A DNA stretch of 64,000 bases from Macrocystis pyrifera (taxonomy: Eukaryota > Sar > Phaeophyceae > Laminariales > Laminariaceae): positions 1-64,000 of the forward strand of contig JASSKH010000031.1 in assembly GCA_031763025.1 (NCBI GenBank), in the 5' to 3' direction. The notes under the pieces are model-generated. The model saw only the letters and a program-made list of their open reading frames with translations. It did no database searches and was not told the origin of the DNA. Position 1 is the first letter of the stretch. The number at the start of each line of letters is the position of its first letter. Below, piece by piece: positions 1-38,995 of this stretch. Both the position numbers and the translations under genes were made by a program.

Positions 1-36
1 AACCCTAACCCTAACCCTAACCCTAACCCTAACCCT
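1..36. repeat. Telomere, six CCCTAA repeats
   Basis: Six perfect AACCCT units open the window and stop at base 36, where unrelated coding-like sequence begins. C-rich strand repeats reading into the chromosome are what the left end of a chromosome looks like. The matching G-strand is TTAGGG. Only 36 bases are present, so the real telomere was probably trimmed in assembly. Confidence 0.95.
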
Positions 37-173
37 CAACCGCCCCCTGCGACACCATCCCACCACTCCCTTGCACCGAAAACGACTTTGGCGATTTCCG
101 CCGACACAGACCACGTATGGACAACTCGGACTTGGTTCTTACCCCCTGCTCTACTGTAACCTCTACCACCGTT

Positions 174-4838: not shown

Positions 4839-5397
4839 CAGGGGTCGAGAAACATAGCATTAAAACCCCGTTGTTAAAATCCTTGAATGAAGTTTTTTTT
4901 CGCCCCCATGGTACTTGGACGTGACTGCGGGGGCATAATGTAGCCGCCATAACTTCGAAAACCACCGAAAATGTTTGCCGAGACTTCGTGAATGTGTTCA
5001 AGTTTTTCGAAGCGATTGCGAAAATCTCCCAAGCGTAATTGTTTTTTAGGGTCGAGAAAGTCAGCAATATAACCATTTGTTCGAATCCTTGAGTGAAAAA
5101 GTTTTCTTTTTCCCCAACGTTCTCGGACGTGACTGTGGGGGCATACTGTAGTCGCCATAACTATCCAAAACACCGATAATTGTTGCCGAGACTTGGTGTA
5201 TGTGTTTTTCAAGTTATTTCAGAGCGATTAAGGCAATCTCCAAAAAGCGTGAATTTTTTTAGGGATCGAAAAAGTCAGCATTATAACCCAGCTATAAAAA
5301 TCCCTGAATGAATTTGTTTTTTTTTTCACCAAGGTATTTGGACGTGACTGTGGGGGCATACTCTAGTCGCCATAACTTTCAAAAACACCGATATTTT

Positions 5398-6175
5398 CAG
5401 GCCTTTTCGCGGGTCAGGTCAAATCTCACGGGTCGGGTCGGATCGGGTCAGCTGACCCGACCCGACCCGCGAGACTATAAAATCCTCTTGACCCGACCCG
5501 ACCCGACCCGCGAGATTTCAAAACCTCCTGACCCGGCCCCACCCGACCCGCCACCTTCGGATTGACCCGTGAGACATGGGTTTCATGCGGGTCGGGTCAC
5601 TTTGACCTGCGAGACTATTTATCTTGACCCGCAGGTCCGACTTGCAGATCCGGCCCGTGGGTCGACACTTCAAAAACAATTCAATTTGCATTTTTGTGCC
5701 CACAAGCACTATGTGGCCTGGCTGTAGTGGGTATTAACGGATGCGGGCATGTGTATATGGATTAGGCAGTGTTTTAAACGCTTGAATAAGATACCAAAGG
5801 AGTATTATTGGGTATTTGTACGAAAAAAGCCTTTGGGTAAGAGAGCGGGAAGTGCTTTGAGTGTCGGATCCGCGGGCCGGATGCGCGGGTCCGACCCGGG
5901 CCACGCTGGCCCGACTCGCGAGTGACCCGTTTCTCACGGGTCATGACCCGACCCGACCCGACCCGTGAGCTTTTTATCACCTCTTGACCCGACCCGACCC
6001 GACCCGACCCGACCCGTGAGACTTGAAAAAATCTTGACCCGATCCGACCCGACCCGTGAGATTTGAAAAAATATTGACCCGACCCGTGAGAGTTTGAACA
6101 CTTCCTGACCTGACCCGACCCGACCCGACCCGACCCTTGACATTGTGAACACCCCGTGACCCGCGAAAAGCCCTG
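5398..6175. mobile_element. Non-autonomous hAT-like element, 778 bp
   Basis: The left end is CAGGCCTTTTCGCGGGTCA and the right end is its inverse, differing at one of 19 positions (CAGGGCTTTTCGCGGGTCA). The direct repeat GATATTTT flanks it at 5390-5397 and 6176-6183. An 8-bp duplication with CAGGG-type ends is the hallmark of the hAT superfamily. The inside is mostly runs of GGGTC/GACCC pentamers, with the left part in one orientation and the right part in the other, so the whole can fold back. No transposase is encoded. It sits inside a satellite unit, whose 208-bp spacing is restored when the element and one duplication copy are removed. Confidence 0.9.
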
Positions 6176-7095
6176 GATATTTTTTGCCGAGACTTGGTGA
6201 ATGTGTTGTTCAAGTTATTTCGGTGGTTAGGGAAATTTTACAAGCGTTAATTTTTTCAGGGGTCGAGAAAGTCAGCATTAAAACCATTTGTTAAAATCCC
6301 TGAGCGAAGAAGTTTTTTTTTCCCAAGGTACTTGGACGTGACTGTGGGGGCATGCTGTAGGCGCCATAACTTTCAAAAACACCGATAATTTTTGCCGAGA
6401 CTTGGTCTATGTGTTGTTCAAGTTATGTTAAAGCGATTAAGGCAATCTCTCAAGCCTGATGTTTTTTAGGGATCGAAAAAGTCAGCATTGCTATAAAAAT
6501 CCCCGAATGAGTTTTTGTTTTGTTTTCACCAAGGTATTTGGACGTGGCTGTGGGGGCATACTGTAGTCGCCATAACTATCAAAAACACCGATAATTATTG
6601 CCGAGACTTGGTGTATGTGTTCAAGTTATTTCAAAGCGATCAAGTCAATCTCCCAAGCTTGATTTTTTCAGATATTGAAAAATTCAGCATTACAACCCTA
6701 ACCCTCACTGAGGCAGTTGGGCGTTACTGGGGGGGCATATTGTAGACGCCATAACTTTCAAAAGCACCGATAATTTTCACCGAGACTTGGTGCATGTGTT
6801 GTTCAAGTTATTTCGGAGTGACTAGGGCAATCTTACAAGGGTGAATTATTTCAGGGGTCGAGAAAGTCAGCATTAAAACCTTTTGTTAAAATCCCTGAGC
6901 GAACAAGTTGTATTTTTTCCCAAGGTACTTGGACGTGACTGTGGGGGCATGCTGTAGGAGCCATAACTTTCAAAAGCACCGACAATTTTTGCCGACACGG
7001 GGTGTATGTGTTGTTGAAGTTATTTCGAAGCGATTAAGGCAATCTCCTAATCGTGGATTTAGTCAGGGGTCCAGAAAGTCAGCATTATAATCCCA

Positions 7096-11398: not shown

Positions 11399-12583
11399 TC
11401 ACAGAGAGTTAACAGACGTACTGGTAGATGTAGTGGTACAAGTCGATCGAAAACAATTTTGCTTCTTGAAAGGCGCGGGTCGCCCTGGGCTACATTCAGG
11501 CCCAGGAACTACTGAACCTCGTTTGATCGGCACACCGTAGGCAATAATGTCCGGGCTCCACGCAGGCTGCTCTTCTTCACCCGGAGACCGCACTTCCAAC
11601 AGGAACATCGGAATATCTCCGGGAACATCTCGAGTTCCCCACCTTGCCTTTCGTTTGGCTACAATCCAATCTCTCACCAAAATAGCGGACTGAAAGAACA
11701 CCGTCATGATCATGCATATGTTTGCCGCGATAAGCACAGCCGCAAATGCCGATATCGTGGTCGACTCCTCATTGGAAACATCCACCTTCAGAAGGAGTGC
11801 TACATACATGCTGGCCAGGATAATACCGTTTCCCCAACGGTATAGACCCATGTCCCCGCTTTTCTCAAAGGGAGACATAGACTCGGAAACAAACAAGAAC
11901 ACCACCGCGAGCAAAAGCACGACCGCAATTTGGGCTGGACTATTGGGAAGGACGAAGACAGCGATTCCCGTAAGCGTGATGCGACGGGCGCACTCGACCA
12001 CCTCGTAGTAAAATCGTGACGGCTTGTACGGTGACCATAGGTCACTAGCGGGCTGCAGCTGTAGCTTAGTGTCCCTACCAGATTTTACGAGCTCTATTCG
12101 ATTGCGCGCAAGCCAATACGTGAAAACCGCCGGAATGCCGATAGGATACACGCAGACCATGAACGTTGCGTATAGCTCGAAATTTTTGTGCTTGTCCGTG
12201 GCGCAGACCAGATCGTAGTCGGCTCGAAGGTATTCTATACCATCGTCCAATTCATCGCAGACAAACGTCTGGAATACAGTGTATGACACAGAGGAATAAA
12301 CGAAGAACGCCACAAAAAGAGCAGCGGATAGGTGCTTGTGTTTCACTCTCCGCAATGCTAGTTCCGAGCCCCTGTTACGCATCTTCGCTATGACATATGT
12401 ACATGATAGTAACCCGAGCACCACAATTGGTGCAATAGTTGAGAGCAGTAGTCGGTCGTAGAAGTTGGTTGCCCACTTGCACGAGAACGAGGAAAGCACG
12501 CCAATGTCGAAATTAATCGGGCTCATCTTCGACAGAAAGTCTTCGTACTCCTGGGGGTAGACGTGTCCAGCGATAGCAGCGAA
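11399..12583 (-). CDS. Exon 12 of the beta-helix gene: C-terminal membrane domain
   Basis: The acceptor CCCTTTTTCTTGCCAG precedes 12583 and joins in phase 0. The 394 residues have at least six hydrophobic segments, including LLLSTIAPIVVLGLLSCTYV, LSAALFVAFFVYSSVSYTVF, YATFMVCVYPIGIPAVFTYW, IAVVLLLAVVFLFV and AAVLIAANICMIMTVFF. The segment TFVCDELDDG...YLRADYDLVC is, from memory, characteristic of this stramenopile family, sometimes compared with TRP-like channel domains. The tail after about residue 330 is hydrophilic and presumably cytoplasmic. The stop codon is at 11399-11401. Confidence 0.85.
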   Translation of the reverse strand, partial: FAAIAGHVYPQEYEDFLSKMSPINFDIGVLSSFSCKWATNFYDRLLLSTIAPIVVLGLLSCTYVIAKMRNRGSELALRRVKHKHLSAALFVAFFVYSSVSYTVFQTFVCDELDDGIEYLRADYDLVCATDKHKNFELYATFMVCVYPIGIPAVFTYWLARNRIELVKSGRDTKLQLQPASDLWSPYKPSRFYYEVVECARRITLTGIAVFVLPNSPAQIAVVLLLAVVFLFVSESMSPFEKSGDMGLYRWGNGIILASMYVALLLKVDVSNEESTTISAFAAVLIAANICMIMTVFFQSAILVRDWIVAKRKARWGTRDVPGDIPMFLLEVRSPGEEEQPAWSPDIIAYGVPIKRGSVVPGPECSPGRPAPFKKQNCFRSTCTTTSTSTSVNSL

Positions 12584-15500
12584 CTGGCAAGAAAAAGGGG
12601 GACAGGAAAGCGCCAATACAAGGATCGAGTAGGCTAAGAATACGTGGTACCTGGAATAGAACATTGATGACATCATGCGTAAATTGGCATCAACCGAATG
12701 CATTCGAGCACTGGAGAGTGGCCACGAAGCACCTCTGTAAATTACGTGACGCGTGGAGCGACACGAGAAAACAGTCCCACATACCCCTACGTTTTGGAAA
12801 TACGGTGTTACCCCCCATACCAAGCAGTGCAACAGATGCACGCGCCGTAATTTTCTGAACGAAATCGTCCACCGATAGTAGGGACGTGCGGAGACACGAA
12901 GTCACGATACCATCAACTCAGTTATTCTGCAATACGGAAAACGAATGCGCACCTGAGAAACGATCTGCCAGACGACCACGACGATCTTGATGGCCGTCAA
13001 GGGGAACACCTTTAGGAGAAAGTCGTGAGTATGCAATGTAATTCGTCCCCAGTAGCTGCGCCCCGCCGAAGTTTCTTCTACCCACTCATCAGTCCCTCTC
13101 CCGAGGTAAGACAAGAGCATCATCGTCGCCACCAGAGCAGCCACTGCTATGAATACTATTAGCCCCGCTGCTGATTGATCGTTCGCAGAGGAGCACTTGG
13201 TACAGGAGTACGATATTCCTTCAGCGAACATTTCCTCGCAAACCGCGCAATCTGCAGGAGAAAGTAGAAGCGGTGTTCGTGGGATACACAAGCGGCGCAA
13301 ACCTTATCAGCCTCTCACAAAAATATTTACGAATCATGTCAAGGAGGCCAACGAACATCATCGAGGCAAGTGTTCCTTGGTGTTTGGCCTGCGCACAGCT
13401 ATAGCCGGGCATTACACTTGGAACTGAATACTACAAACATACCCTGTATACAAACACGCGAAATGACACGTGGCCATTGCGTTTGAGCAGGTGCAGATTA
13501 TCTCATTCAACACAGAGTCTTCATTGCCTTTCGTGATCATGGTGTGCGGGCCGTTCGCTTGTTCCTTGTATGGTGGGTGTCCAGTGGAAACATTGACCGG
13601 GTCTGCCCTTGACGGTAGGCGTAGTACCACATTATGCTGAGGAGATCTTGACCTCACCCAGTCACTGAGTTTGACATCTAAACCTGCAATCCAATGAACA
13701 ATCCCAAATCCCAAGCAAAGCACGAAAAATAATGTACAACACTACAATCAATAATAGTATTCCAATGACATCGGGCACAAGTCCCTAAAAAATGGTTTGC
13801 TAACAAAAGTCATCTCCTGTTGTAGCACGCCTCACTTACAGGGGCCTCGGTAGCCATCCGCGCAGTACTTTCCTGCGACGTCACCCCCCTCGCAGGCTTC
13901 GTATTGATAGCACTCACGAACATCTGTGCTAGTGTTCAAGGTGCGGTAGTAGCCCTTTAAAATTTGTATACTGGCCAGGGTAACGCCGGTTATTGAAGCG
14001 TTTGTGCCGAGCGGGAGAGGTTCGCACACAGGTATCCGACCGCTGTCTGTTACCACTGCCCCTTCCTCCAAGATTTCGCTCCCGGTCTTGCACCGGGCGC
14101 ATGCCATATCGAAGCGAGTCTCGGTATCATTCTGCTCGGTGTCAATCTGCATATCATTGAACGAAGCAGGGCAAAAAAATAGTTGAGACACGAATCTAAC
14201 TCCGCTGGATTGTTAGTCCCGTTTATTGAAATGGCTCCCGACATGCGAGTCATCCACGTCGATTGCGAGTGGAAACACGCTGAGAGAATGACAGGAGGGG
14301 CACGGGGCGAATCTCGCAACAGTTGCCTATATGCAGCTATTAGACACGTACAACGGGTCTCATGCACCGCAAACAATACAGGCGTCATCCCACCGTCGGT
14401 GGCAGCGTCAACGTGAAATGGGTTGTTCAGACCGTCAATTTAGCGGTCGTTACGTTTCAGTGTCTCAGTGTTGCTGCTCGGCCAAGTAACTGTTTAGATC
14501 ATGATCCTCACCTGTACACCTGATATTAGGTTCAGCTGATCTTCATACATCCTACACACACGTGTAGCTCGAGCTTGTAAAGATACTGCAGTAAAAAGTA
14601 CCAGGGTAATGTTTTTCTCAATTTCATTCCGTCATACGAGCAACAGTACACGCCATTCATAGGCAAAATCCGACTAATGACGGCAAGTGCGCCTTTCATG
14701 TTCACCTTGACGTCCGTCATGTTGCGATATTCACCAGCAGCACAATGCAAATCGTTGTCGACGAAGGTGACGTTTTGCATAGATTCCAGCAGTCCAATAC
14801 TGATGACGGCAAGTCCTTCGTCCCCCGCTCTGTTGGCAGTAAAGTTGCACATATTCAACGTCATGCTGCCTGTGTGGAAAATGGCTCCTCCTGATATCCC
14901 TGTGTAATAAATCGCCCCCAACATGCGAGTTAGATTTCTCCATGACAGAAGTTACGCGCTATTATTTATTATGTTAGTATCGAAGGAATACGGCTTACCA
15001 ACACCGATGTCGCAAAAACGCGTATTCAAGCGCAGGTCCCCGAACGCAGATACAACGCCAGCAACCTGAAGCCGGACTTGAATGCTGTTGGGTTCACAAA
15101 TAGCATCAAATTCATCAAATTTGTATCTGAGGATATTTCGAATAATTAGTATTTCGTGGGCCGGACGTTCAAGCCGAGAAGCAAATGCGCTCTGTTGTAA
15201 AATGTTGACACCGTTTCAAGACATCTCACTTGCATAGTTCCCGACAAAAGTGGAATTCTTCACTGCCGCAGTCCCTGCGCCAGTGTACAGGTACAACGCT
15301 CCTCCGTCTGTGGCGTTGTTTTCCTCAAAGTAACACTCCCCAAATTCTCTTGTGTCCTCTTTGGTTGATGTGAGAGAAATAGCACCGCCAAACTCTGCAC
15401 TGTTGAGGTTGAACCTTGAGCCACTGAGGTCAAGATCATCAGGCGCAGTGATCAACATTGCGCCTCCTCCAGCCTCCGCAGAATTGTTCGTGAATGATAC

Positions 15501-18500
15501 GATCCCCTTGAAATTAAGGCTCGACTCCGACGTGGATGCGATTGCACCTGAAACCCGGTACGACCGTTGAAATAAAGGCAACGTATTAGGGGCGTTGTTG
15601 GCAGTGAGCAGACGTCGTCCAAAAAAGATGAAATATTGTCAAACTTCCATCAGCAGTGTTTCGTGAGGAAAGGAAAAATAGAAATCTGCAACATCAACAA
15701 AGTGTGATTCGTAATAGTTGGGTTATCGAGAAGGGGTCTCAATCTTGTTGAAGGGGACGATACCTCGCCAGGCGTGGTGACCCGGTCGGGAACAGGTGCG
15801 TGAACCCTCGGAGTCATATAATTGCAAACCTCGGTGTAGTGACGATCCAGTCGCCGTCGCCCGTTAAGGTTTCCCTGGTCGAGGCGACAGCTTTACCTCA
15901 AAGGATTCACCTGTACTCGCCGCCTCAGGCGTTGGACGGCGTTCCTGACCGACGAGTCTATGCAAACGTTGAAAGGCAATACATGTTTGCCGAGTTTCAG
16001 GAAAATGTCTGCACGCGATGACGCAGGCTGACTGGTGTAACATACACCCTCAAGGTGCTGCAGAGTCCACAAAAATCCCGGGGGTCCCCTTCCAGGCTTA
16101 GCTCCTGTTTCTACTGTGCGATGCATTGGTTGTTTACGTTGTTGTCCAACAGCCCGTACAATATCATGAATTTTCTAGTACTACCGGTTGAACCCTTGGG
16201 ATTGGATATGTGAGTTTTTATTGATGCCACACTTTAGGGTACACACAGGACGCGGGGGGTTGGCCTTGGGTTGTCGACCAAGACGGTATCAGCACAACAC
16301 ATGTATATCGAAGAAACGGTGGACAGACTCGTCTACTGGGTGATCGGAACGAATACTCGGCACACAAGACGATGGACCTGATAACCATTGCTTTCGGAGA
16401 CAACATTTTGTCCACTCTTAACTACGATTTGGCCTTCATATCCGCGGTTTCATTCTCAGAGGAAAGCAATGTATATACAGGTATATACTATTTGCGCAAT
16501 GTTGCTGTCCGTGGACGATGATATTAGGCCCAATCTAGAGACCTACATGGTGGTGCGCAAACCAGCGAGAAACGGGAGAGTCTCCCAAAAAGACATTTCC
16601 ATGGATGACTTGTCGCAGAACTGTTCGCCGTTCTATCCAACCACCACCGGTGACACATACGTACCAGGCAAAGACTGAGCACAGGCGACCCATGAAGATA
16701 CTTAATAAAGTATCAACTAATTGTGACTATTTTTTTGTTCGTACATGAGTACCTGTTTCCGCCCATGGGTATCACATGTTACGAGCTGTTGTCGCTGGCT
16801 ATACATCTTACCTCCACTGCGAGCCCAATTGCTGGTGAAATTGGTGTGGGAAGTGATAGTAGTTGTGCAAGTTTCGTCGCTGATGGCACCTGCGGGTGCG
16901 ATATCACGAGTATACGATGGTCATGTTAAAAGGTAGTCCCGTAACATCGTCATGTAAGGAGCAGTTGGACGGACACAGACCGTATCGTGGACGCTGAGTA
17001 AGAGCGGTATAGAGTTGTTCATCGTCCATATATCCTTCCGAGAGCAGACTAGCGTGTATCTATAAATAGTTGGAATAGTTGTGTGTGCAGTCCATCGCGC
17101 TGCACATCATGTAAGGCAGTAGCACATATCATGCTGAGCGTGTATGTTGAAGACGTCTAAATTCCCCATACGCCTTTGTTGGAGACGGCACACGGAACTG
17201 CGCGGAAACGAACCGCGCTTGCAAGCATCCCCGTTTTTGTGCGTAGCTACGCGTCCCACCGAATAGATTCGGGATGTTAACACTGCATCATTTCACCCAC
17301 CCGGCAATGCGTCACAATGTGACGATGAAAAAGCTACTACTACGCTTGAGTGGACAGGTGATGGCGAGTTTCGACGATACAGTCAGAATATTCCAGGAAC
17401 GACGATAGTACACAGACGTTGGAGTACTATCACCCCAGAGAAATCGCGCGCATACACTGTCTCGTCGCACCTCCGTCCATGCTGGCCGCATTCCCCTCGA
17501 AGATGGTTTCACCATGGATGTTGATCTCGGAAAAATTGGCATGGATTGCACCTGCCGGTAGACGAAACGTACAACATCGTCTCCATCGATGAGATTGTTC
17601 ACGGATACCCATCACCCAGATCGCACTTGTTGTGGTTCGGGACGTTTCATCGACAATTTATACTGACCAACTTTTGCGGGATCAATTTACAACTTGACGT
17701 ACGAGTGCTGTGTGGTGTGTGATGTGGGTGTTGAATAGTTCTTAAGGTGCGTTGACCAAGCTGTTGGCCATGCGTACCCTACCACCTGTACGCGTGGCCA
17801 ACGGCTGGTATGTTGATCCCCGTTCGTTTTAGTCAAGTAGATTGTGAACCGCTGGCGCTCGGTACTGGGCCATTATCAACTCCCCGTACATCTATTTTGA
17901 CAGAGGAAGGTTCCAGAGTTCCAGGTATTAGAAGCTCACGTACGTCCGACAGGAACAAGTCACAGTGCAACGGAAATCTATTGGAATGTGCGTTTGAGAG
18001 AGAAACCAGTACAGCAGAGTCGTACAAGCCTGTATCGCCAGATCAGCGTACTATTAGTTCGCAGTTTCGACTTTTCCTGGGTCAATATACGTACCACTCT
18101 TCACCCGTGTAACCAAAGTATTGTTCGCTATTGCGAAGCCAAACCAAAATCTGGGTCGGATCCAGGTCTTTGGGTGCTGACGCGTCCAGAACCAGTCTTC
18201 TTCTCGGAGCTACCAGATAGCTTGCTCTGGGTACAGGGCGATGACAGAGCTCTTTGTGCCCGGGCTGAATCCCATATGACATCGTTGGTCGGGAGAAGCC
18301 TTACATGTGTTTGTGTTCATGGGTTCAAGCTTGCGTAGCTATCCCTGCGAGTCATGGTTCAGAGATGTTATGTGGCCACTACTTACCTCCTCCATCCTTT
18401 GCGTTGTTCCACGCCAAAAACGAGGTATCCCAGAAGTAGATGAAAGCGTTCTTGCTGTTGATGGCACCTGTAATTCATGACATACGCGCAATGCCAACAA

Positions 18501-21500
18501 TCTTCTGGTTGGTCGGGGGTAATCCGGTTGGGTACTACTGATTGAGTTTCTCACAGTCAAGAAACTCGTGCACGGATTTTGGCAAGTGTACAGTGCAAAT
18601 ACTCCACCTTACTTGGCAAATACACGGTCTCGAAGTATAGACGTGCAATCGCTGTCAATATGGAACGAGAAGCAAACAATCAACTCCACAGTAAACGCAA
18701 GCGTAACATAAACACATGCACTCGCGAAGCGGGTTTGTCGCAGAACTGCTGGATGCTATTCTACGACCATCATGTGTCGTGATGACAATAGTGCGTTCAT
18801 TGCCGTGGTTGAGGTGGTACAACTCTGTGTGAAGAGAACTTGTGTACACATGAACGATTGTCAAGCGATTGGCCGAGCCATCTTCTGTTGCGTATCAGGT
18901 ACGAAATATATGAGCCCATGCTGGACAAGCCGAGAGGAGCGACGTCGTTGACGGATTATTCCAAACATTGATAACCCGTGAGTTGCCAAGGAACCGAAGC
19001 GCACCACTCAGTGGCCATGGCAGGTACCAATACGAACATTAGAACGATTGTGGGCGATCACATCGTATGTATCTGATATTTGGCACATAAAGGTACGCTA
19101 ACTGGCAAGTCGTGCCTTAGGGTTAGGGATAGGCGTTGCACAAGTCGTTCATCTTGGAATAGTTTGAAACACATTTGAATTATTTCTATCAATATCAACA
19201 CATCCACAAGATCAGAGGAGCGCGCCCACACATCATTGAAACCCCATTTGCAACGCCACGGCATGCGCACATTGTTACCTGTAAACGAACAAAGTATTGC
19301 AGTTTTATATCTTGAAATGGATCGTCTACCAGCAAACTAATGTATTGTGTGTAATACACAAGTACGGCTGCCAAACGGCTTGTAAGTCCTCTCTAAGTCG
19401 CAGTCCATTAGGTTGACGTACAGTATGCTGAGCGTGTTTTCACCGTCTGGTTTCCCCCATCCTGCTGAAAAGAACTGTCAACCATTGGACCCTTCGCACC
19501 TCCGGTTTTCTTTGCCGTGTTGTTCGTGAAGTTCACTCCGCCGTCGAAGGAGATGTTGGATGAGATCACATTCAAAACACCTACGGATTGAACAGATGGC
19601 AAACACGTGCGCCATGCGTCATACGTGTTGATATTTCCATATTTCTATTTCTATACAAGGCCCTCTTGGGAGCGGTTAAAGACCACAATCCAATCTATCC
19701 AGGCGCCCTGCGGTAGCTGTCTAGTCGAAATAACGCGAAACGAAGGCAGCACCAGCGGTGCTCCGTTCCAAGACAATAAACATGGTTTGAGGTCTTTGTG
19801 CTCTTGCTGGTATATTGAGACAAAATGCCAGGGGTGTTCAAAGGCCTGTGACACAAGTGCCTTGCTGGCGATGTCTTCGTGACATAACACTATACATTTC
19901 AATAGTGAACCATGTTCTATTGCTGGACATGAATTTTACTGACACTATACTACCAGGTGTATATTAAGATCGTGAACCATGTCCTGTGCAGGCCGATGAC
20001 GGCACAGGCTGTTTTCGCCTGAAATTACTTGCAGATTATCACATATTGTGAAAAATACTTGTGATGCACATATGCACCATGCAAAGAGCAGTGGCCATGG
20101 TTTAGCGCTTCGAGGCAATGGATGCACTCCCGTCCTAGGTTAATTCCAGGATGAATGATCTAGTGAGCAAATTTTGTATCTATCAATTATCTACTCCAAG
20201 AAGCGTCGGGGGCGTTGCTTTGATTCATCGTCTTTTGTATATTCATTGGTTTCGTCCTGCACGAGAATGCTACTTTGAATTTGACGTGCTACGTGCTTGT
20301 GCGACGGAGAGTAGACTTGTTCGGACTGACTCAATTTCCGTATATCCCAAACAAGCGCCATCCCAAACCCAATCACCGCGGCATATGCCTCGAACCCGTA
20401 CTTGATGAAGACATGTGGTACAACTTCGTGTGAGCGTGCTGTGTCGCAACCTGCACACCCCATCCGACGCACAATTCTGAGTCCAAATGTGAACAAATAT
20501 AACGAGTAGCGTTTGGTTAAACTTCCCGATGATTGTGGGAAATATATCCACCCCAGTATCATTTTTATAAAGAATGTGCGACGCCGTGGCCAGTGGAAGA
20601 GAGAACAGCAACTGTGTCCCTGAATCCGTATGGAACATTGGTGCAGATCACATCCATGCAACGTTTCCTTGATAGCATGTATTATTTAAGGCAACAGAAG
20701 CAAGTGCTAATAGCTTTCCACGCACACTACGTTGGCAGGGTTCTATCGTGAACCTTCCTGGAATTTCAATCGCTGGCTGGTGCTCGCCGAGCGGCCTTGA
20801 TACGATTGTCACCTCTAACTGAGTTGATCCCGGACAGGGTCAAACATATCGTCTCGAAGCAGGAGACGGGCGACCTGAAAGGCTTGGAAATCGTGGGATA
20901 TCCACGCATCCACGTATGTTGTGTAGTGCACAGCAGTCGTTCATGCGCATGCATATATCCGACAATTTTCGAGTTTTTGTTTCCGTCGAAGGAGCAACCA
21001 AGGTGCATGATACCAACGCATTCATCTCGCATATTCACGCACGTTCAAACGCACCTCCACGCTCGAATGCTGTGTTGTTCGACGCACATACTTCGTCAAA
21101 TGTCACGTTAGATTTCTCGGAAATGGCGAACACACCTGTGGATGGGAATGCGACGAAGTCCACCAAGTCAATGGATTCAAGAAATGTACCTCAACAATGG
21201 CCGAGGTGGGTGTTGGACGTAAAACGTATATCGTTTACTTGGTAAACCTCAGGACATCGTGTGACCGTACGTAGTGAAGGATTTGGAGCATTTCTTGCAG
21301 AATGCCAAGCTTAGAGCCACTGATCGAATTGCACCGACAAGCCACGCATGTGGATGCAGTATACCCTCATGAACGACGCATGAAACGAGCCTCCCGTTCC
21401 CCTTGGGGTACGTGCAGTGGCTTACACGAGGAATCCAATTCTGGCATGGCCTTACTATACATATTTATGCGATGCGTAGGTGCATGCAGATGGTTCAAGG

Positions 21501-24444
21501 TTGGAGGTACGGACTTCTAAGTGATCGTCGTCTCCAAAGGGGAATGGGCCAATCAAAACATTGCGGTCACGCCATACCATGCACCTGAACGTAAATAATA
21601 ACTCGAATCCCACTGCATGAAGCACGTTTATAGACAAAAGACTACGATATATTAAGCCGACCAACGCGGTCCTCTCGTCTCGACATCACTAAGTGGTGGG
21701 TGTGGGCTTTATAAGTCACCTTCGTTCGCGGCAATACAACTGTCCACCCTGTGAATGGATAAAACCGGAAAACGTTCAAGGCTAGGTCTAAAATGGACGA
21801 AGCAAAGCAACCCAGAAGGTGAGCGATATTGTTACGGGCAGGATATTCGAAGTGTTGTGCCAGGTATTTGTTACTACGCCAATATTTCATACATTTCAAG
21901 CCCTGGTCTTCCTCCATGTTAAATGCAAAATATCGTAGAACAACGGGAGCAAACCTTAACCTCGTAAAAGGACGGGATACGTTGTTGTAGGCATACCTCC
22001 ATCTAGCGTTGCTCTGTTGTTGGTGAAGGCGTTCCGTCCGGTAAGGGAGACGTTGGAGGATGCTGCGCTTAGAGCGCCTCCTGCGACATACCAAGCAAAC
22101 GACAGGACGGAAGAATAAATGTCGGTTGCAGGCTTCCTGTATGCAACCGATGGTGATGCTCCGACGACCGCCTTCAAGGAACTCCTTTCGTCAGGCATTG
22201 AACACAACTGAGGGAGGTAATACATATGATGATGCTAACCTTTGAGGGCAAATATGTCGATTGTTCACGTTGGACAATATCACTTCCAGGGTGCCATCAT
22301 TCGCCACAAGACACAGATACACATTCTTGGGACGAATCGGGCAGGTCTTACGGCCAACGCAAATGCGGTCATTTTTACGTGTCAATTGTACGAAGTATAC
22401 TTGTCCGTTGGCGTGGATAGGTCCCTGGCGCGAGTGCAAACCCTGGTAAACTCTTGGTTTCGCTGTGTTGGTTGTACATGCGCGTCTCGATACTTCTGGA
22501 CCATGTTATCAGGTACGTAGATACAACTGCTTGGATCAACCAACCAAGCCCAACCCGTCTCCCGTTGGTAATCAGGGAATGGTTATATTGCCGATAAAAT
22601 CTACAGTACAGACTCCGATTTATGTCAAAACCTATGGCGTTCTGGTGTATCTGAGTTGTGGCCACATGCCACTGTCCTGCTTTCTTCAAAGGCAGCTTTC
22701 GTGTATGGCGTATGCACGATACAGTGTTGGGTACATTTAGCTTTCGTCTATGCTAGATAAAAACTTTACGACGTCAGCACAGCCTGCCGGTATACTAACA
22801 GTAGAGCTAGACTCACCTGGAAGGTATTTCTTAAGCAATAGTTTGCACATATGTTCGTCCACCCCTCTTAGTTCAAGATTGCTCAACTTCAACACTCTCA
22901 CGTGCACCCCCCGTAAGTGCGAACCACATACTGCCTTGCTGGGCGACTGAGCACTTTTGCGTGTCGCACGGCCGGATGGATCCAAACATCGTTACTCTCG
23001 TGTGGGGTGGATGGTGTCATATTTAGTTACTCTGGTATGACATTAAGGGCATGATAGATGTACATTGTACGGTTTCAACCATATATTCATTTCATTGAAC
23101 GAGACTCGGGAGTATTAAATCAGGGTCTGGAAAACATCTTGATTGCTGTACTGCCACATTGATCGACTCATCCAGGGCAGGATCCGCGGAGTACAACATA
23201 CCAGGTCGGCACAACTCTATAGCAACAGGCTCAAGGTTATGGTCATGGCTGGAGCCTTCGCCTTCAGTAAGTAGCAGTAGAGTAAACCTGTGCAATGGCG
23301 CCAAAACTATGTAAACATTATTCAAGACTACTGCTGTCTTGAACTCGATTGGTTCAAAGCACCATCATTTTTAAAAGTAGTCTGGTGTGCACAGTTAACA
23401 GCACGTTAAAACGGTCGACTCCGTCGGCACGTCAAGCGGGCCCCTGGCGGGAGCACCGACGTCCGGCGATAAAGCAGACTCACCAGGAAACTAACAAGAT
23501 TATTGAAGCTCATAAACTATCAGTGTTTCCAAGAATATACAACGGATTTTAACGGCAGCAGTACCGAGGTAAACGCTCTTAGTACTGCAGTCCCGTTGGG
23601 GGGAAATCTGCTTGTATTACGATTGGTTTGTCCCCAAAACGGGACGGCGGTTTTAGACGGCTCAAGAACTACCAGGAAACGACATTCGGAGTTTTCTACC
23701 CGACCATCTGTCGATACAACATTCTCATCAGTTAGAGTTAAGGTAGCGGCCACAGCAATCGCAAACCACTTTTACAGGGATCCTCGACCCATCATGTACG
23801 TCTCATCGCGACAAATCTGCGCAGTCTTACATATTTTTTTTCAAGTCTTCGTCACATCAATTTTGATTGAAAAGAATGCACGAAGTCGATTCAAGCCGTC
23901 TTGGGGATGTGGGTTGTTACTATACGCGGAGAAATACCAGTCGACACGCTTGGTTCAGGAAATCACAAACATCACCTGACAACGAAGCGCTGTTGCCCAC
24001 GAAGTTGCAGTCGCGCACAATCACCGTGCTGCTTTCAACAGCTGATATTGCCCCCCCAGCACCGGTTGCATTGCCCCCTGTAAGGACCAGCTGACTCAAG
24101 GTGAGCGACCCGTTAGACACAAAGAATATGCGGTCAGTGCCATCAGCGTTGATTTCAGCATCGTTGGACCCGGTGACAGTTAAGCTGTTGCCTTGGGACA
24201 CCTCGATCCTTTCGTCGATCGTCAAGACGCCGGGCCAGGTCACATCGAAAACTCCTTTTGTGCAGTTCTTCATCGCCTCGCGTAGTTTCTGGACATGTTC
24301 AGGCTCAGCCACATCCCCTTTATAGACCTCAGATAGACAAGAACCCGATTCTACGTGGAAGACGGAGAAGGACGCCAATGTAGTCACCACTGCAAATAGA
24401 CTTGCCTTCAACCTACAGCAGACGAAACGGCACGAATAAGGCAC
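11399..24444 (-). CDS. Right-handed beta-helix repeat / multi-pass membrane protein, 12 exons
   Basis: Exons on the minus strand: 24444-23976, 22080-21997, 21135-21055, 19580-19500, 18467-18387, 17551-17471, 16889-16812, 15547-15230, 14899-14706, 14146-13840, 13251-12953 and 12583-11399. All introns are GT-AG. Phases agree throughout and lengths sum to 3258 bp, or 1085 residues. Order: a signal peptide (about residues 1-35), a beta-helix start with NADGTDRIFFVSNGS, then repeated rungs of the GGAI...FxNNxA type resembling chlamydial Pmp repeats, a Cys-containing stalk (CADGYRGPYCAVC across an intron), and about eight membrane helices. Beta-helix domains commonly bind surfaces or polysaccharides. 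A surface receptor or adhesin role is inference. The acceptor of exon 10 is the least certain boundary, and further rung exons may have been missed. Confidence 0.85.
12953..14146 (-). CDS. Exons 10-11 of the beta-helix gene: Cys stalk and first two membrane helices
   Basis: Exon 10 (14146-13840) carries RFDMACARCKTG and ends GYRGP. Exon 11 (13251-12953) continues YCAVCEEMFAEG and SCTKC, giving a cysteine-rich EGF-like or juxtamembrane stalk. A hydrophobic helix (AAGLIVFIAVAALVATMMLL) and a second one (LTAIKIVVVVWQIVSQ) follow. The donor GTAAGTGA of exon 10 and the CTTTCTCCTGCAG acceptor of exon 11 are both strong. Exon 10's own acceptor (GATATGCAG) is weaker. Confidence 0.8.
15230..15547 (-). 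CDS. Exon 8 of the beta-helix gene: fused multi-rung exon
   Basis: At 318 bp this exon is about four times the usual rung exon and carries four successive rungs: GAIASTSESSLNF...FTNNSA, GGGAMLITAPDDLDL, FGGAISLTSTKEDT and DGGALYLYTGAGTAAV...FVGNYA. It starts after a TTTCAG acceptor and ends at GTGAGA, phase 1 at both sides. It looks like single-rung exons that lost their introns, or the ancestral state before introns were gained. Confidence 0.85.
20191..20661 (-). CDS. Unrecognised fragment inside intron 3, 156 codons
   Basis: This open frame lies within the intron between 21055 and 19580, on the same strand as the gene. It contains a hydrophobic stretch (FEAYAAVIGFGMALVWDI) followed by a charged tail with DETNEYTKDDESKQ. 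A second overlapping frame at 20270-20638 contains FPTIIGKFNQTLLVIFVHIW. The pair could be one membrane-protein C-terminus split by a frameshift, or chance. I recognise no family. It lacks the phase-1 borders of the rung exons, so I did not include it in the gene. Confidence 0.25.
   Translation of the reverse strand: MHGCDLHQCSIRIQGHSCCSLFHWPRRRTFFIKMILGWIYFPQSSGSLTKRYSLYLFTFGLRIVRRMGCAGCDTARSHEVVPHVFIKYGFEAYAAVIGFGMALVWDIRKLSQSEQVYSPSHKHVARQIQSSILVQDETNEYTKDDESKQRPRRFLE
23976..24444 (-). CDS. Exon 1 of the beta-helix gene: signal peptide and first rungs
   Basis: The first Met (24444) is followed by basic residues and a hydrophobic stretch around ASLFAVVTTLASFSVF, a typical secretory signal. 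The mature part contains NSLTVTGSNDAEI, then TGAGGAISAVESSTVIVRDC and NFVGNSAS, which are beta-helix rungs. The exon ends CAG|GTGATG on the coding strand in phase 1, matching the next six exons. The start is the only Met that gives a signal peptide in this frame. Confidence 0.85.
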
Positions 24445-26520: not shown

Positions 26521-27450
26521 ATGTAGGACACTTTGTCCAACAATTTTTCCAAGACCAAGACACAGCTTTCTCGGGGAGGTAGATCCGAAATCCAAAGACA
26601 TCGGCAAACGCCTTGTTTCTAGGTGCAGGTCTCCAAGGAGTTTTTATTCCGTTTTTTCTTCCCTGAGCGTTTGTATCGTAGATAAACCGAAAACTCTCCA
26701 AACGTTTCTTGAGACCGGGGAACTTTCATGATCACCAATATCTCAATCAATTTGGACAGCTCTCAACATTTTCTCGCGACTCGATTTTTCTTGTTTTGAC
26801 AAATAGAAATTTGATTGACATATTCCAAAAAAACTGGATCTAGGAGGTCGACTTCACTAGTTTTATTCAGGATAATTACCAATACGGTTTTTAAAAACTG
26901 TGCGGCAAACGATTCCTTTCATCAAACTACGCGAAGAGTTATTTCTATTAATAGTGAGAAAAGCTGTACGTATACGTCCCGAGGTATTCGTAAAATTGTT
27001 TTGCCACTGCCTCACACGGACCCACATGAACCTACACACTGAAAATAGTATCAGGTATATACGATATACCATACTTAAAGTAGTATGTCCGATACAACAC
27101 ACACACCCACACAGCAGGGCTCTGTTGGGGTGACACACCCACACAGCAGAGCTAGGGTTATAGGGGGGGCTAGAGGACTGCAGACCACAAGAAGGAAGCA
27201 GAGGCGGTAGCAGCGAGCAGCTGGACAGGAATGCCGGACGTTTTCCGTCCTTCAAAGCACTCAAATTCTCAACAAGTGGAAGAAGCAAGCGAAACAAATA
27301 CGGTGATGCAGGAGGCAGCGGAGGATACGGGTCTGATTATTGGGGGAGGGGCGTTGTTAGACACATGTGCGGTGACTGGGTGAATCACTTTGTGAAAAAA
27401 ATGTTTTGGCGTGTGGAGAGGCAATTATGAATAGTTCCTGTGACGGAGTG
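26521..27450. other. No recognisable gene
   Basis: ACACCCACACAGCAG is repeated at about 27107 and 27138, followed by a telomere-like AGGGTTATAGGG. A minus-strand frame (26863-27297) has no recognisable domain. Confidence 0.45.
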
Positions 27451-28509
27451 TGGTTTAGGGTTAGGGTTACAGAGTGTGATTTTGGCGTGCAAGGAGGTCC
27501 TCCTGTGGCTGGGTATGGATTCGGCGAGAGTGCTAAAAAAAAAAACTACGAATACTGCCGGTGGGTTGTTCGAGTGAGCATTGCTCTACAATACACCATG
27601 GCTGATATTTCAGCCACATGGGACAATATTATGATTATATGGTACAGTACGTACGACATGTACAATGTATCGTATGTGCGTACGTATAATTGTACGTCGG
27701 TTGCCATTGAGCTGTACCGTACAAAAAAACATGATCACTGCTGCCGTGAGAACGATGTGCGTACGGGTGACATTAGCGCCAACCTTCGGCTATATCGGGT
27801 CGATTTCGGGATAATTTCGGGTTAATTCGGTGGAAAACGTTGCTTTTCTTCCAAAACAAAAAACACCGCCGATGCCATGTGTACGTTTTTGACATTAAAC
27901 CGTTTTTTCTACACGTCGACATCCAGTTCAACCAGTGTCAGTGCCGATTCTTCAATCCGAAAAGAGATAAAGGTGAGAAGTTATGTGGTAACCAAACTAT
28001 GCCACCAATTGCAAGTTAGCTCTCACCAACACGTTTTTCAGCACGCGCAAGGGTGGGATTTCGCATACACACAACGGCACCAGCCCGAGTGACCGTAAGC
28101 GGATCGACTACATCCTAACCCGTCAAGCCCATCGACCTAGAGTACAAGATGTTGAAGTCGTCCCACAGCCTCCTGCCCCAGCTAAGGCTGACTCAGACCA
28201 CAACATCTTGTATTTCAAAGTCCGACTCAGTGGTCACTTTGCGTCCAACAGACAAATACGTAGACCGACAAAACGCCTAGAGTTCGACAGGCAGCTTTTT
28301 ATGTCCGATGGAAAGTGTCGTGAACGCGTAGTCGCGAGGGTCATCTCCACTCTCAACCAGCTTAACCAGCCCCGTAATACGTCTGGCATGGTTGAGTTTT
28401 TCACTGCGGCTATTATTGATGCGGTCGAAAAAGAGGGACCACCCCCTCCACGTCGCCACCGCAGACATGAATGGTGTGAGTCTGTGGTTTAGGGTTAGGG
28501 TTACAGAGT

Positions 28510-28857
28510 GTGATTTTGGCATGCAAGGAGGTCCTCCTGTGGCTGGGTGTGGATTCGGCGAGAGTGCTAAAAAAAAACTACGAATACTGCCGGTGGGTTG
28601 TTCGAGTGAGCATTGCTCTACAATACACCATGGCTGATATTTCAGCCACATGGGACAATATTACGATTATATGGTACAGTACGTACGACATGTACAATGT
28701 ATCGTATGTGCGTACGTATAATTGTACGTCGGTTGCCATTGAGCTGTACCGTACAAAAAAACATGATCACTGCTGCCGTGAGAACGATGTGCGTACGGGT
28801 GACATTAGCGCCAACCTTCGGCTATATCGGGTCGATTTCGGGATAATTTCGGGTTAA
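28510..28857 (+). CDS. Hypothetical 115-codon frame repeated in each 1.03-kb unit
   Basis: A frame beginning MILACKEVLLWLG and ending RVDFGIISG is open in all four units. The other copies are at 29542-29889, 30573-30920 and, in a longer form, 27406-27825. A few amino acids differ between copies. I recognise no domain, and recent duplication alone would keep the frame open, so coding is doubtful. Confidence 0.2.
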   Translation: MILACKEVLLWLGVDSARVLKKNYEYCRWVVRVSIALQYTMADISATWDNITIIWYSTYDMYNVSYVRTYNCTSVAIELYRTKKHDHCCRENDVRTGDISANLRLYRVDFGIISG

Positions 28858-30984
28858 TTCGGTGGAAAACGTTGCTTTTCTTCCAAAACAAAAAACACCG
28901 CCGATGCCATGTGTACGTTTTTGACATTAAACCGTTTTTTTCTACACGTCGACATCCAGTTCAACCAGTGTCAGTGCCGATTCTTCAACCCGAAAGAGAT
29001 AAAGGTGAGAAGTTATGTGGTAACCAAACTATGCCACCAATTGCAAGTTAGCTCTCACCAACACGTTTGTCAGCACGCGCAAGGGTGGGATTTCGCATAC
29101 ACACAACGGCACCAGCCCGAGTGACCGTAAGCGGATCGACTACATCCTAACCCGTCAAGCCCATCGACCTAGAGTACAAGATGTTGAAGTCGTCCCACAG
29201 CCTCCTGCCCCAGATAAGGCTGACTCAGACCACAACATCTTGTATGTCAAAGTCCGACTCAGTGGTCACTTTGCGTCCAACAGACAAATACGTAGACCGA
29301 CAAAACGCCTAGAGTTCGACAGGCAGCTTTTTATGTCCAACGGAAAGTGTCGTGAACGAGTAGTCGCGAGGGTCATCTCCACTCTCAACCAGCTTAACCA
29401 GCCCCGTAATACGTCTGGCATGGTTGAGTTTTTCACTGCGGCTATTATTGATGCGGTCGAAAAAGAGGTACCACCCCCTCCACGTCGCCACCGCAGACAC
29501 GGATGGTGTGAGTCTGTGGTTTAGGGTTAGGGTTACAGAGTGTGATTTTGGCATGCAAGGAGGTCCTCCTGTGGCTGGGTATGGATTCGGCGAGAGTGCT
29601 AAAAAAAAACTACGAATACTGCCGGTGGGTTGTTCGAGTGAGCATTGCTCTACAATACACCATGGCTGATATTTCAGCCACATGGGACAATATTATGATT
29701 ATATTATACAGTACGTACGACATGTACAATGTATCGTATGTGCGTACGTATAATTGTACGTCGGTTGCCATTGAGCTGTACCGTACAAAAAAACATGATC
29801 ACTGCTGCCGTGAGAACGATGTGCGTACGGGTGACATTAGCGCCAACCTTCGGCTATATCGGGTCGATTTCGGGATAATTTCGGGTTAATTCGGTGGAAA
29901 ACGTTGCTTTTCTTCCAAAACAAAAAACACCGCCGATGCCATGTGTACGTTTTTGACATTAAACCGTTTTTTCTACACGTCGACATCCAGTTCAACCAGT
30001 GTCAGTGCCGATTCTTCAATCCGAAAGAGATAAAGGTGAGAAGTTATGTGGTAACCAAACTATGCCACCAATTGCAAGTTAGCTCTCACCAACACGTTTT
30101 TCAGCACGCGCAAGGGTGGGATTTCGCATACACACAACGGCACCAGCCCGAGTGACAGTAAGCGGATCGACTACATCCTAACCCGTCAAGCCCATCGACC
30201 TAGAGTACAAGATGTTGAAGTCGTCCCACAGCCTCCTGCCCCAGCTAAGGCTGACTCAGACCACAACATCTTGTATTTCAAAGTCCGACTCAGTGGTCAC
30301 TTTGCGTCCAACAGACAAATACGTAGACCGACAAAACGCCTAGAGTTCGACAGGCAGCTTTTTATGTCCGATGGAAAGTGTCGTGAACGAGTAGTCGCGA
30401 GGGTCATCTCCACTCTCAACCAGCTTAACCAGCCCCGTAATACGTCTGGCATGGTTGAGTTTTTCACTGCGGCTATTATTGATGCGGTCGAAAAAGAGGG
30501 ACCACCCCCTCCACGTCGCCACCGCAGACATGGATGGTGTGAGTCTGTGGTTTAGGGTTAGGGTTACAGAGTGTGATTTTGGCATGCAAGGAGGTCCTCC
30601 TGTGGCTGGGTGTGGATTCGGCGAGAGTGCTTAAAAAAAACTACGAATACTGCCGGTGGGTTGTTCGAGTGAGCATTGCTCTACAATACACCATGGCTGA
30701 TATTTCAGCCACATGGGACAATATTACGATTATATGGTACAGTACGTACGACATGTACAATGTATCGTATGTGCGTACGTATAACTGTACGTCGGTTGCC
30801 ATTGAGCTGTACCGTACAAAAAAACATGATCACTGCTGCCGTGAGAACGATGTGCGTACGGGTGACATTAGCGCCAACCTTCGGCTATATCGGGTCGATT
30901 TCGGGATAATTTCGGGTTAATTCGGTGGAAAACGTTGCTTTTCTTCCAAAACAAAAAACACCGCCGATGCCATGTGTACGTTTT

Positions 30985-31100
30985 TGACATTAAACCGTTT
31001 TTTTCTACACGTCGACATCCAGTTCAACCAGTGTCAGTGCCGATTCTTCAATCCGAAAGAGATAAAGGTGAGAAGTTATGTGGTAACCAAACTATGCCAC
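30985..31100 (-). mobile_element. 3' end of an older LINE, minus strand (left part)
   Basis: ACATTAAACCGTTTTTTTCT and the following 90 bases are the reverse complement of the terminal segment of the LINE family, diverged from the younger copies. It breaks at ACTATGCCAC, where the plus-strand LINE starts. The same LINE resumes at about 34760 on the other side. Equivalent pieces occur in each tandem unit. Confidence 0.8.
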
Positions 31101-31302
31101 CAATTGCAAGTTAGCTCTCACCAACACGTTTTTCAGCACGCGTAAGGGTGGGATTTCGCATACACACAACGGCACCAGCCCGAGTGACCGTAAGCGGATC
31201 GACTACATCCTAACCCATCAAGCCCATCGACCTAGAGTACAAGATGTTGAAGTCGTCCCACAGCCTCCTGCCCCAGCTAAGGCTGACTCAGACCACAACA
31301 TC

Positions 31303-31752
31303 TTGTATGTCAAAGTCCGACTCAGTGGTCACTTTGCGTCCAACAGACAAATACGTAGACCGACAAAACGCCTAGAGTTCGACAGGCAGCTTTTTATGTC
31401 CGATGGAAAGTGTCGTGAACGAGTAGTCGCGAGGGTCATCTCCACTCTCAACCAGCCTAACCAGCCCCGTAATACGTCTGGCATGGTTGAGTTTTTCACT
31501 GCGGCTATTATTGATGCGGTCGAAAAAGAGATACCACCCCCTCCACGTCGCCACCGCAGACATGGATGGTGTAAGTCTGCCGAAACCTTGGCCGCATTCA
31601 TATTAGCATGGACAGCGAGGGAGGATGCACGGCAATTCTTGCGTGCCCACCCCCAGGATAGAACCGCGTGGATCACACAGATCTGCGTGTGCGAACTTGC
31701 AGAAGGTGATTGCCGCAGGACTGGATGCGTACTTCGAAGCGTACCTCGCTGA
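31303..31752 (+). pseudogene. LINE A endonuclease-side ORF, 3' part
   Basis: This frame holds the region between endonuclease and RT (VKVRLSGHFAS, DRQLFMSDGKCRERVVARV, EFFTAAIIDAVEKE). The catalytic endonuclease core is missing by truncation; upstream bases still encode a THNGTSPSDRKRIDYI motif. The frame ends at 31752, after overlapping the RT frame by about 128 bases. The same overlap exists in copy C. Confidence 0.75.
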
Positions 31753-33834: not shown

Positions 33835-34759
33835 CAGGGAAACTGCAGTGGACGAAAGTAGGAAGGAGATGGCAGATAGGGTAGCCAGGTACCGGGCAGA
33901 CTAAGAAGTAGAACATGCCTATACTACTCGTACCACCAACTGGTGCAGCTGGTTCGAACGTGGTCTTCCTTTGTCTTCCTGTTGTTTTTGTTTATTTTTA
34001 TTTCATTTTATTGTCTTCTTTGCGGTGACCCTATGTGATTTTCATTTCTCTTCCTTTTTCCGATTGATAAGCCTTATTGAAGGAGTCGTGTGGCGTGGGT
34101 GGATGACGAGCCTGCTCTGCTTGTTTCGTACTGTCTGACGCCGAGGGGCCGGGCATAGTTGACGAACGCTGGACGATGGTGGCAGACAGGGTAGCAAGGT
34201 ACCAGGCGGGCCAGCAGGGAGACCCTGGCTGTGCTACTCGTACCATAAACTGCTGCCGCTACCTGGAACATGCCTTGTGCTTTGTTTGGTTTGACTGTTA
34301 TTTTTACCTTGGTTCTTAGTCTTACTCTGTTGACGACTAGTGGTGTTTTCTTCTTTTTCTTTTTTTTTCCAGCTCGTTCTTTTCAAGTGTCTGCCACGTC
34401 CCCTACGTGGGGGTACGATGGTTTGTTGCTATACTGAAGTATATACATATACCAGGTATATTTTAGTTTCTTTTCTCTTTCGAATTGTCTTTGTTTTTGT
34501 TTTAGTTTTTTCTCTTTGTTTCGTTTCTGTGTCTCTAGGTCATGGAATGTGTATGTCGTGCCTGTCGTACGCAGTATGATGACATGGCATTGCATTACAT
34601 ACGTGGCAACGTAGTATCTCTGTGGCGTAGCTTAGTGACCACATAACTTGTATCTCTCTAGGTTTGAAGAATCGGCATGAACACTGGTTGTGCTGGATGT
34701 CGGTCGACGTGTAGAAAGAACGGTTTAATGTGAAGAAAACAACAACAACAACAACAACA

Positions 34760-35224
34760 TCAGCTGTACGTTGCCACGTATGTAATACGATGTCCTTACA
34801 CCGGATACGATAGCCACGACATTGTATGAAACAGAGAAACCAAACAAAACAGATAAAAACAATACAAAGACGAACCATAAGGGAAAAAAATGGAAGAATG
34901 AAGCTGTTGTGCACCCCCCCAGGGGATGTGTCAGACACTTGAATAGAGCTGGAGCTGAAAAAAAGAAAACATCACTACTTATAAACAGAGTGAAACTAAG
35001 AACCAGAGGAAAATAACAGGCAAACCCAAGCACATAGCACCCTCCAGGTAGCGGCAGCAGTTTGTGGTGCGAGTAGTATTGTCAGGGTCTCCCTGGTATT
35101 CCGCCTGTTACCTTGCTACCCTGTCTGGCGTCTCCGTCCTGCGTTCGTCAACTATGCCCCGCGCCTCGGCGCCAGACAATACGAAACAAGCAAAGCAGGC
35201 TCGTCATCCACTCACGCGCCACGT
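34760..35224 (-). mobile_element. Older LINE, minus strand (right part), 3' UTR
   Basis: The sequence is the reverse complement of the LINE 3' UTR seen at 34081-34612, with many substitutions. It starts at ACGTTGCCACGTATGTAAT, exactly the stretch expected to follow the part at 30985-31100 if copy A had inserted between them. It fades out at about 35224, near the equivalent of the end of the LINE coding region. Confidence 0.8.
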
Positions 35225-38824: not shown

Positions 38825-38995
38825 GTTGTTGTTGTTGTGTGTTGTTGTTGTTGTTTTCTTCACATTAAACCGTTCTTTCTACGCGTCGACATCCAGCACA
38901 ACCAGTGTCCGTGCCGATTCTTCAAACCTAGAGAGATACAAGTTCTGTGGTCACTAAGCTACGCCACAGAGATATAACGTTGCCACGTATGTAAT

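What the first reader, a model, noticed from the sequence alone, without database searches (positions are those of the whole stretch)
11399..24444. Modular beta-helix surface gene with symmetric phase-1 rung exons near a telomere
Seven consecutive internal exons (78, 81 or 84 bp, and one of 318 bp) each begin and end in phase 1. Each small exon encodes one rung cassette, so any can be skipped, duplicated or swapped without breaking the frame. The gene lies within 25 kb of a chromosome end, among repeats. Together this suggests a surface protein that could diversify by exon shuffling or alternative splicing. Exon lengths and phases are read directly; the diversification role is inference.
Basis: partly seen in the sequence, partly recalled or inferred. 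Interest (0 to 1): 0.75.

Follow-up and report, generated by a model that had tools for sequence, protein, structure and literature searches.

The report
Kelp surface protein with one-rung exons
A brown-seaweed gene near a chromosome end encodes a spiral-shaped surface protein built from repeat-sized exons, but the copies examined keep the same exons, so it seems to vary by gene copying and point changes rather than by shuffling exons.

Summary
On the minus strand a 12-exon gene (24412-11399) reads as one open frame. Seven consecutive exons (84, 81, 81, 81, 81, 78, 318 bp) are symmetric phase 1-1: six carry one beta-helix rung each, the seventh four. The host is a brown alga, probably Macrocystis pyrifera (inference). 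The protein joins a PMP-type parallel beta-helix, a Cys-rich neck and a multi-pass membrane domain (TRP-like in some relatives). The membrane domain has at least 105 places in this genome; on 35 large contigs 25 of 74 lie within 300 kb of an end, against 3 of 109 kinase hits, so the chromosome-end position is a family trait. Diversification by exon shuffling is not supported where tested: eight near-identical places (at least six distinct) keep the same exons and splice sites in every part read, and an older paralogue pair (61% in the membrane domain) has the same six single-rung plus one four-rung exons. Another subfamily packs its rungs into long open frames. Between species the count differs by about one rung. 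What varies is sequence: one-rung exons change amino acids faster than the four-rung exon or membrane domain, and the window copy alone shows accelerated change confined to exons. Alternative splicing could not be tested.

The parts
1..41 (.). telomeric TTAGGG-type tract (AACCCT x6.7)
   Evidence: the window is C213:1-64000 of an 8.87-Mb contig
23976..24412 (-). exon 1 of the model: rest of signal peptide, N-terminal cap, rung 1; an upstream start exon is not resolved
21997..22080 (-). exon 2, 84 bp, phase 1-1, one rung
21055..21135 (-). exon 3, 81 bp, phase 1-1, one rung
19500..19580 (-). exon 4, 81 bp, phase 1-1, one rung
18387..18467 (-). exon 5, 81 bp, phase 1-1, one rung; weakest profile score (E 1); 78 bp in five of the eight copies, 79 in one, 81 in two
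17471..17551 (-). exon 6, 81 bp, phase 1-1, one rung
16812..16889 (-). exon 7, 78 bp, phase 1-1, one rung
15230..15547 (-). exon 8, 318 bp, phase 1-1, four rungs without introns
14706..14899 (-). exon 9, last partial rung and cap (acceptor refined by relative P0002)
13840..14146 (-). exon 10, Cys-rich neck
12953..13251 (-). exon 11, end of Cys-rich neck and first membrane helix
11399..12583 (-). exon 12, multi-pass membrane domain, tail, stop codon

Best explanation
This is one member of a large brown-algal family of cell-surface proteins: a right-handed parallel beta-helix ectodomain made of PMP-type GGA(I/L/V)...FxxN rungs, a Cys-rich neck, and a multi-pass membrane domain that some relatives match to the TRP channel family. 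It most likely works as a wall- or polysaccharide-facing sensor or channel: the helix reads a ligand outside and the membrane domain passes the signal (function inferred). The one-rung exons are an old, conserved layout of one part of the family. The family varies mainly by copying whole genes near chromosome ends and by amino-acid change in the ectodomain, above all in the one-rung block, not by present-day shuffling of rung exons. Shown: gene structure, copy number, chromosome-end enrichment, constant exon layout in the copies examined, fast-changing rung block. Inferred: surface location, ligand class, signalling role.
Confidence: 0.6

Rival explanations
1. Cassette diversification, the first reader's view: rung exons are gained, lost, swapped or skipped to produce variant ectodomains, as claimed for LRR exons of brown-algal ROCO genes.
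For: All seven exons are symmetric phase 1, so skipping keeps frame. Ectocarpus models P0002 and P0003 differ by exactly one 27-residue rung, and Scytosiphon P0001 has one rung more than the window gene. The ROCO precedent reports LRR exon shuffling and splice variants (PMC11378527, sections read).
Against: Exon content is constant in the eight near-identical places wherever read and the one-rung and four-rung exons of C195a/b match in number. No further rung exon was found in the introns by the profile. Introns share no similarity with each other, so no trace of recent exon duplication. Within the gene each rung's best-scoring partner is at most 48% identical.
Confidence: 0.15
2. Parallel intron gain: an intron-free rung array was cut by introns inserted at the repeated proto-splice site GGAG|GT that every rung border offers; exon symmetry is a by-product of the repeat.
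For: Introns 2-7 all sit in GGAG|GTG. The four-rung exon keeps three uncut GG borders at the same register. Paralogue C126 has 24 rung-profile hits (13 and 11) in two long open frames.
Against: Intron sequences show no common origin, so no introner-like element. Window, C195 and C223 share an uncut four-rung exon of 318-327 bp, which suggests one inherited layout. Direction, gain or loss, was not tested on a tree.
Confidence: 0.3
3. The window copy is a decaying pseudogene or assembly artefact.
For: Four sister places have frameshifts; the window lies in a repeat-rich chromosome end.
Against: The window copy reads without internal stop through 12 exons. Against the outgroup copy introns have 10 indels per kb, exons 1.6.
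Confidence: 0.1

Closest known systems
Chlamydial polymorphic membrane proteins (Pmp; Pfam PF02415)
   Same: Rung motifs GGA(I,L,V) and FxxN in a parallel beta-helix (abstract start of PMC11166332 as listed); large, variable surface family
   Different: No autotransporter family found by Pfam in the window protein; instead a Cys-rich neck and helical membrane domain; eukaryotic, intron-rich
[quoted passage not shown]
   Same: Same sequence family over most of the length (35% identity over 81%); the window gene is a member
   Different: I found no published description of the one-rung-per-exon layout, copy number or chromosome-end enrichment (searches; open-licence library only)
Brown-algal ROCO (LRR) and NB-TPR genes
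   Same: One structural repeat per exon, constant intron phase, in brown algae (PMC11378527, sections 11 and 15)
   Different: Phase 1 instead of 2; 78-84 bp instead of 72; beta-helix rather than LRR or TPR; no ROC-COR domain; no shuffling found among the copies examined
Subtelomeric variable surface families of parasites and fungi (VSG, var, FLO; recalled, no call)
   Same: Large surface-type family enriched near chromosome ends
   Different: Kelp copies examined keep one exon layout; switching or exclusive expression is unknown

Membership tests
Chlam_PMP repeat proteins (PF02415) | repeat match above the curated cut-off | tested here: met
   42 bits against cut-off 20.6, E 5.2e-11 (on the 1,071-aa translation before exon 9 was refined)
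Chlam_PMP repeat proteins (PF02415) | parallel beta-helix fold | tested here: met
   Predicted on relative P0001, not on the spliced window protein; Foldseek alone best E 0.0084
Pmp autotransporters of Chlamydia | C-terminal autotransporter barrel | tested here: not met
   No autotransporter family at E<=1; C-terminal part is helical and hydrophobic
TRP / Flc-type channels (PF06011) | match to the TRP profile in the membrane domain | tested here: inconclusive
   No match for the window protein at E<=1; 14 of 41 relatives match at E<=1, best 1.7e-8
TRP / Flc-type channels (PF06011) | fold of a solved channel | tested here: inconclusive
   No convincing structural match
ROCO / NB-TPR shuffled-exon genes of brown algae | one repeat per exon, all in one phase | tested here: met
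   Six one-rung exons, all phase 1-1; the seventh symmetric exon has four rungs
ROCO / NB-TPR shuffled-exon genes of brown algae | repeat-exon number differs among recent copies | tested here: not met
   Same exons in eight places wherever read; C195a/b same six plus one
ROCO / NB-TPR shuffled-exon genes of brown algae | splice variants with different repeat sets | not testable with these tools
   No RNA data available
ROCO / NB-TPR shuffled-exon genes of brown algae | ROC-COR or NB domain | tested here: not met
   Pfam scan shows neither at E<=1
Subtelomeric variable surface gene families | enrichment near chromosome ends | tested here: met
   25 of 74 against 3 of 109 kinase hits, p 9e-9; contig ends, not all shown to be telomeres
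Subtelomeric variable surface gene families | exclusive or switching expression | not testable with these tools
   No RNA data available

The most novel reading that the evidence does not exclude
Kelps carry a large chromosome-end family of beta-helix membrane receptors that diversifies quickly, and the telomere-proximal window copy is being remodelled in its exons only. Its lineage has 46 private changes in 3,213 exon sites against 31 in 9,436 intron sites, with a sharp step at the splice borders, both replacement (38, about 7.9 expected from the intron rate) and silent (8, about 2.5 expected) changes raised, and 13 exon against 4 intron sites that share the outgroup state. Exon-only change of both kinds would fit overwriting from a spliced (cDNA) copy of another family member; in the one-rung exons, where 13 replacements stand against 1 silent change from C167, it would fit strong selection for new ligand specificity.
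Probability: 0.15. Interest if true: 0.8.

Novelty: new variant of a known kind. Interest (0 to 1): 0.5.

Why it matters
Brown algae evolved complex multicellularity on their own, and what they use to sense walls and microbes is largely unknown. A family with more than 100 genome places, enriched near chromosome ends, with a sugar-binding-type fold on a multi-pass membrane domain, is a strong candidate receptor set. It also offers a third repeat fold, after LRR and TPR, for the exon-shuffling hypothesis of brown-algal immunity, and here the copies examined do not shuffle. The question is directly testable with kelp RNA and resequencing reads.

Tried and rejected
Introner origin of the introns: no mutual similarity at blastn E 1e-2. 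Further rung exons in the window: none by the profile, best score elsewhere E 0.31; since true exon 5 scores only E 1, a very degenerate one could be missed. A closer genomic donor for the window's exon-1 changes: a DNA search listed only the same eight loci; the same search with exon 12 did not complete. Conversion by genomic tracts spilling into introns: the first 100 bp of introns have 4 private changes in 2,174 sites. Exon acceleration as a family rule: rejected; the two other ingroup branches show none (11 of 3,213 against 46 of 9,436, and 19 against 60), nor does the C195a/b pair, 10 of 2,622 exon and 84 of 13,705 non-coding sites. Rung-by-rung orthology with Scytosiphon: reciprocal best hits for only 5 of 11 rungs, three of them the last three of the four-rung block. 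C223 gave at least five single-rung exons and C191 at least two; their gene starts were not found or not fetched, so their totals stay open. Membrane-domain fold: nothing convincing among solved structures; the VIA list showed no TRP channel, which excludes nothing. Rfam and tRNA scans of the window: none at their default thresholds. Literature: nothing on this exon layout found; the library lacks most subscription papers.
Full report
What is there. The gene lies on the minus strand. Twelve exons from 24412 to 11399 join into one frame of 1,074 residues with only a terminal stop. The seven exons in the finding have lengths 84, 81, 81, 81, 81, 78 and 318 bp; all start and end in phase 1. Introns 1-8 and 10 are phase 1, introns 9 and 11 phase 0. 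Each of the six small exons holds one rung; the 318-bp exon holds four, and exon 1 holds one more, so eleven rungs plus a partial last rung in exon 9. Exon 9 was refined to 14899-14706, since that acceptor (present in 8 of 8 copies) restores the sequence seen in relative P0002. The Pfam and homology searches used the 1,071-residue translation made before that. The start codon lies in an upstream exon that I did not resolve.

Is it more than chance. Open symmetric AG..GT segments of 72-93 bp are frequent (158 in 13 kb), so the borders need other support. A profile of rungs from 34 relatives plus 10 window rungs, run over all six frames of the window, puts its seven best frames on seven of the eight rung exons (E 0.008 or better). 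Exon 5 (E 1) and the cap exon (E 0.33) are not above background (best elsewhere E 0.31); they rest on splice sites, frame and conservation. Splice sites are kept in the related copies wherever read. Against the outgroup copy, introns differ by 10 indels per kb and exons by 1.2-1.6, and 13 of 18 exon indels over four pairs are 3 nt; for the close pair window-C167 the two rates are equal.

Host. The best relatives are Scytosiphon and Ectocarpus proteins. The assembly has 537,376,219 bases; the 35 contigs C189-C223 sum to 467 Mb, 87%. A table in PMC12116465 (passages seen) gives Macrocystis pyrifera 537.5 Mb, 35 chromosomes and 92% in chromosomes. Size and number fit, the share less well; giant kelp is likely, by inference.

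Family and place. The membrane domain has 105 scored places in the genome at E<=1e-5, a lower bound. Of 74 on the 35 large contigs, 25 lie within 300 kb of an end (3.3 expected); counted as clusters, 21 of 53 (2.4 expected); limits of 100, 200 and 500 kb give the same picture. Protein-kinase hits at E<=1e-10 as control: 3 of 109. Contig ends are not all telomeres: of 35 contig starts read, telomere repeats are plain at C197, C204, C208, C211, C213, C215, C220 and C222, with one unit at C214 and C219; the other ends were not read. Tandem and segmental copies are not independent, so p values are indicative.

Do exons shuffle. Eight places match the 318-bp exon at 93-100%, and the same eight regions match exon 1 at 88-100%. 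C100, C167 and C170 are 99.7% alike over 16-20 kb and may be one locus assembled three times, so at least six loci are distinct. Six were read for exons 1-12; C203_22k for exons 3-12 (its exon 1 is listed, exon 2 was not read); C170 for exons 1-10, to its contig end. All exons read are present, in order, at the same splice sites; lengths differ only by indels of 1-4 nt. Paralogue C195a, 61% identical in the membrane domain, has exon 1, six one-rung exons (84, 81, 96, 84, 78, 81), a 327-bp four-rung exon and the cap; C195b, read from its first one-rung exon, matches. C223 shows at least five one-rung exons and a 321-bp four-rung exon; C191 at least two, its start not fetched. C126 has 24 rung-profile hits, 13 and 11, in two long open frames. 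Across species, counted on predicted proteins, P0001 has seven rungs between rung 1 and the four-rung block, P0002 seven, P0003 six, the last lacking exactly one rung. The layout is thus stable in the recent and older paralogues examined and drifts slowly between species. This speaks against shuffling as the current engine here; it does not test splicing.

How it varies. Between C203_7.13M and C202_12.2M (intron divergence 10.2%), dN/dS is 0.118/0.150 in exons 2-7, 0.045/0.167 in exon 8, and 0.031/0.099 in exon 12. C202 carries frameshifts; its sister C203_22k, without those length changes, gives 0.124/0.180 for exons 3-7 and the same for exon 8. The rung-exon replacement rate exceeds exon 12 (p 2.5e-7) and exon 8 (p 0.005), but not introns (p 0.72). 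So the one-rung block is the loosely constrained part, and positive selection is not shown by this comparison.

The window copy is odd. With four taxa (window, C167, C203_7.13M, C202_12.2M), private window changes number 46 in 3,213 exon sites and 31 in 9,436 intron sites (p 1.7e-10); leaving out sites within 6 bp of a gap, 45 of 3,093 and 25 of 7,978. The other two ingroup branches show no exon excess. Thirty-eight are replacements and 8 silent; the intron rate predicts about 7.9 and 2.5. In the one-rung exons window and C167 differ by 13 replacements and 1 silent change. Relative-rate tests agree: exons p 0.027 to 2.3e-4 over eight combinations, introns 0.065 to 1. The first 100 bp of introns have 4 in 2,174. 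Raised silent change, mostly outside the one-rung exons, and 13 exon against 4 intron sites shared with the outgroup argue against simple positive selection over the whole gene and hint at exon-limited overwriting, but no donor was found in the assembly by the exon-1 search. It is one lineage in one assembly, and C195a/b show nothing of the kind.

Comparison. In brown-algal ROCO genes each LRR sits in a 72-bp phase-2 exon with reported shuffling and splice variants (PMC11378527: outline and abstract, sections 11 and 15; the 2012 original, Zambounis et al., was not held). The present gene shares the repeat-per-exon plan with another fold and phase, and without shuffling in the copies examined. 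Introns 2-7 lie in GGAG|GTG, so intron gain at a repeated proto-splice site remains a serious rival for the origin of the pattern.

Verdict. A real, well-read gene structure; an interpretation right about architecture and place, not supported about mechanism on present evidence.

Noticed in passing
window 554-2992 (+): Retroelement remnant with integrase zinc-binding domain (Integrase_H2C2, E 1.2e-12) just inside the telomere tract.
   Followed up: partly
window 4842-6691 and C211:1-50 (L058): Satellite of about 206-215 bp; its motif (...TTGGACGTGACTGTGGGGGCA) also directly follows the telomere repeats at the start of contig C211, so it may be a shared subtelomeric satellite.
   Followed up: no
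window 27449-31579 and 31096-45533: Four tandem copies of about 1,032 bp (98% alike) beside a reverse-transcriptase frame (31607-33358, RVT_1 2.5e-33), with a long inverted partner at 40793-45533 holding a second RVT_1 frame.
   Followed up: partly
C100, C167, C203_6.98M, C202_12.2M copies: Coding frameshifts in four sister copies, at least one at a homopolymer; dead genes and assembly errors cannot be told apart here.
   Followed up: partly
C203_22k, between exons 5 and 6: Insertion of about 6.7 kb in the intron relative to the window copy, with exons in place.
   Followed up: no
C126:3394001-3414000 (L053, L054): Paralogue with 24 rung-profile hits in two long open frames; several relatives of its membrane domain lie on the same contig.
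   Followed up: partly
window 24344-24286 (start of mature protein in exon 1): Short N-terminal stretch after the signal peptide differs in all copy groups and carries the densest changes.
   Followed up: partly
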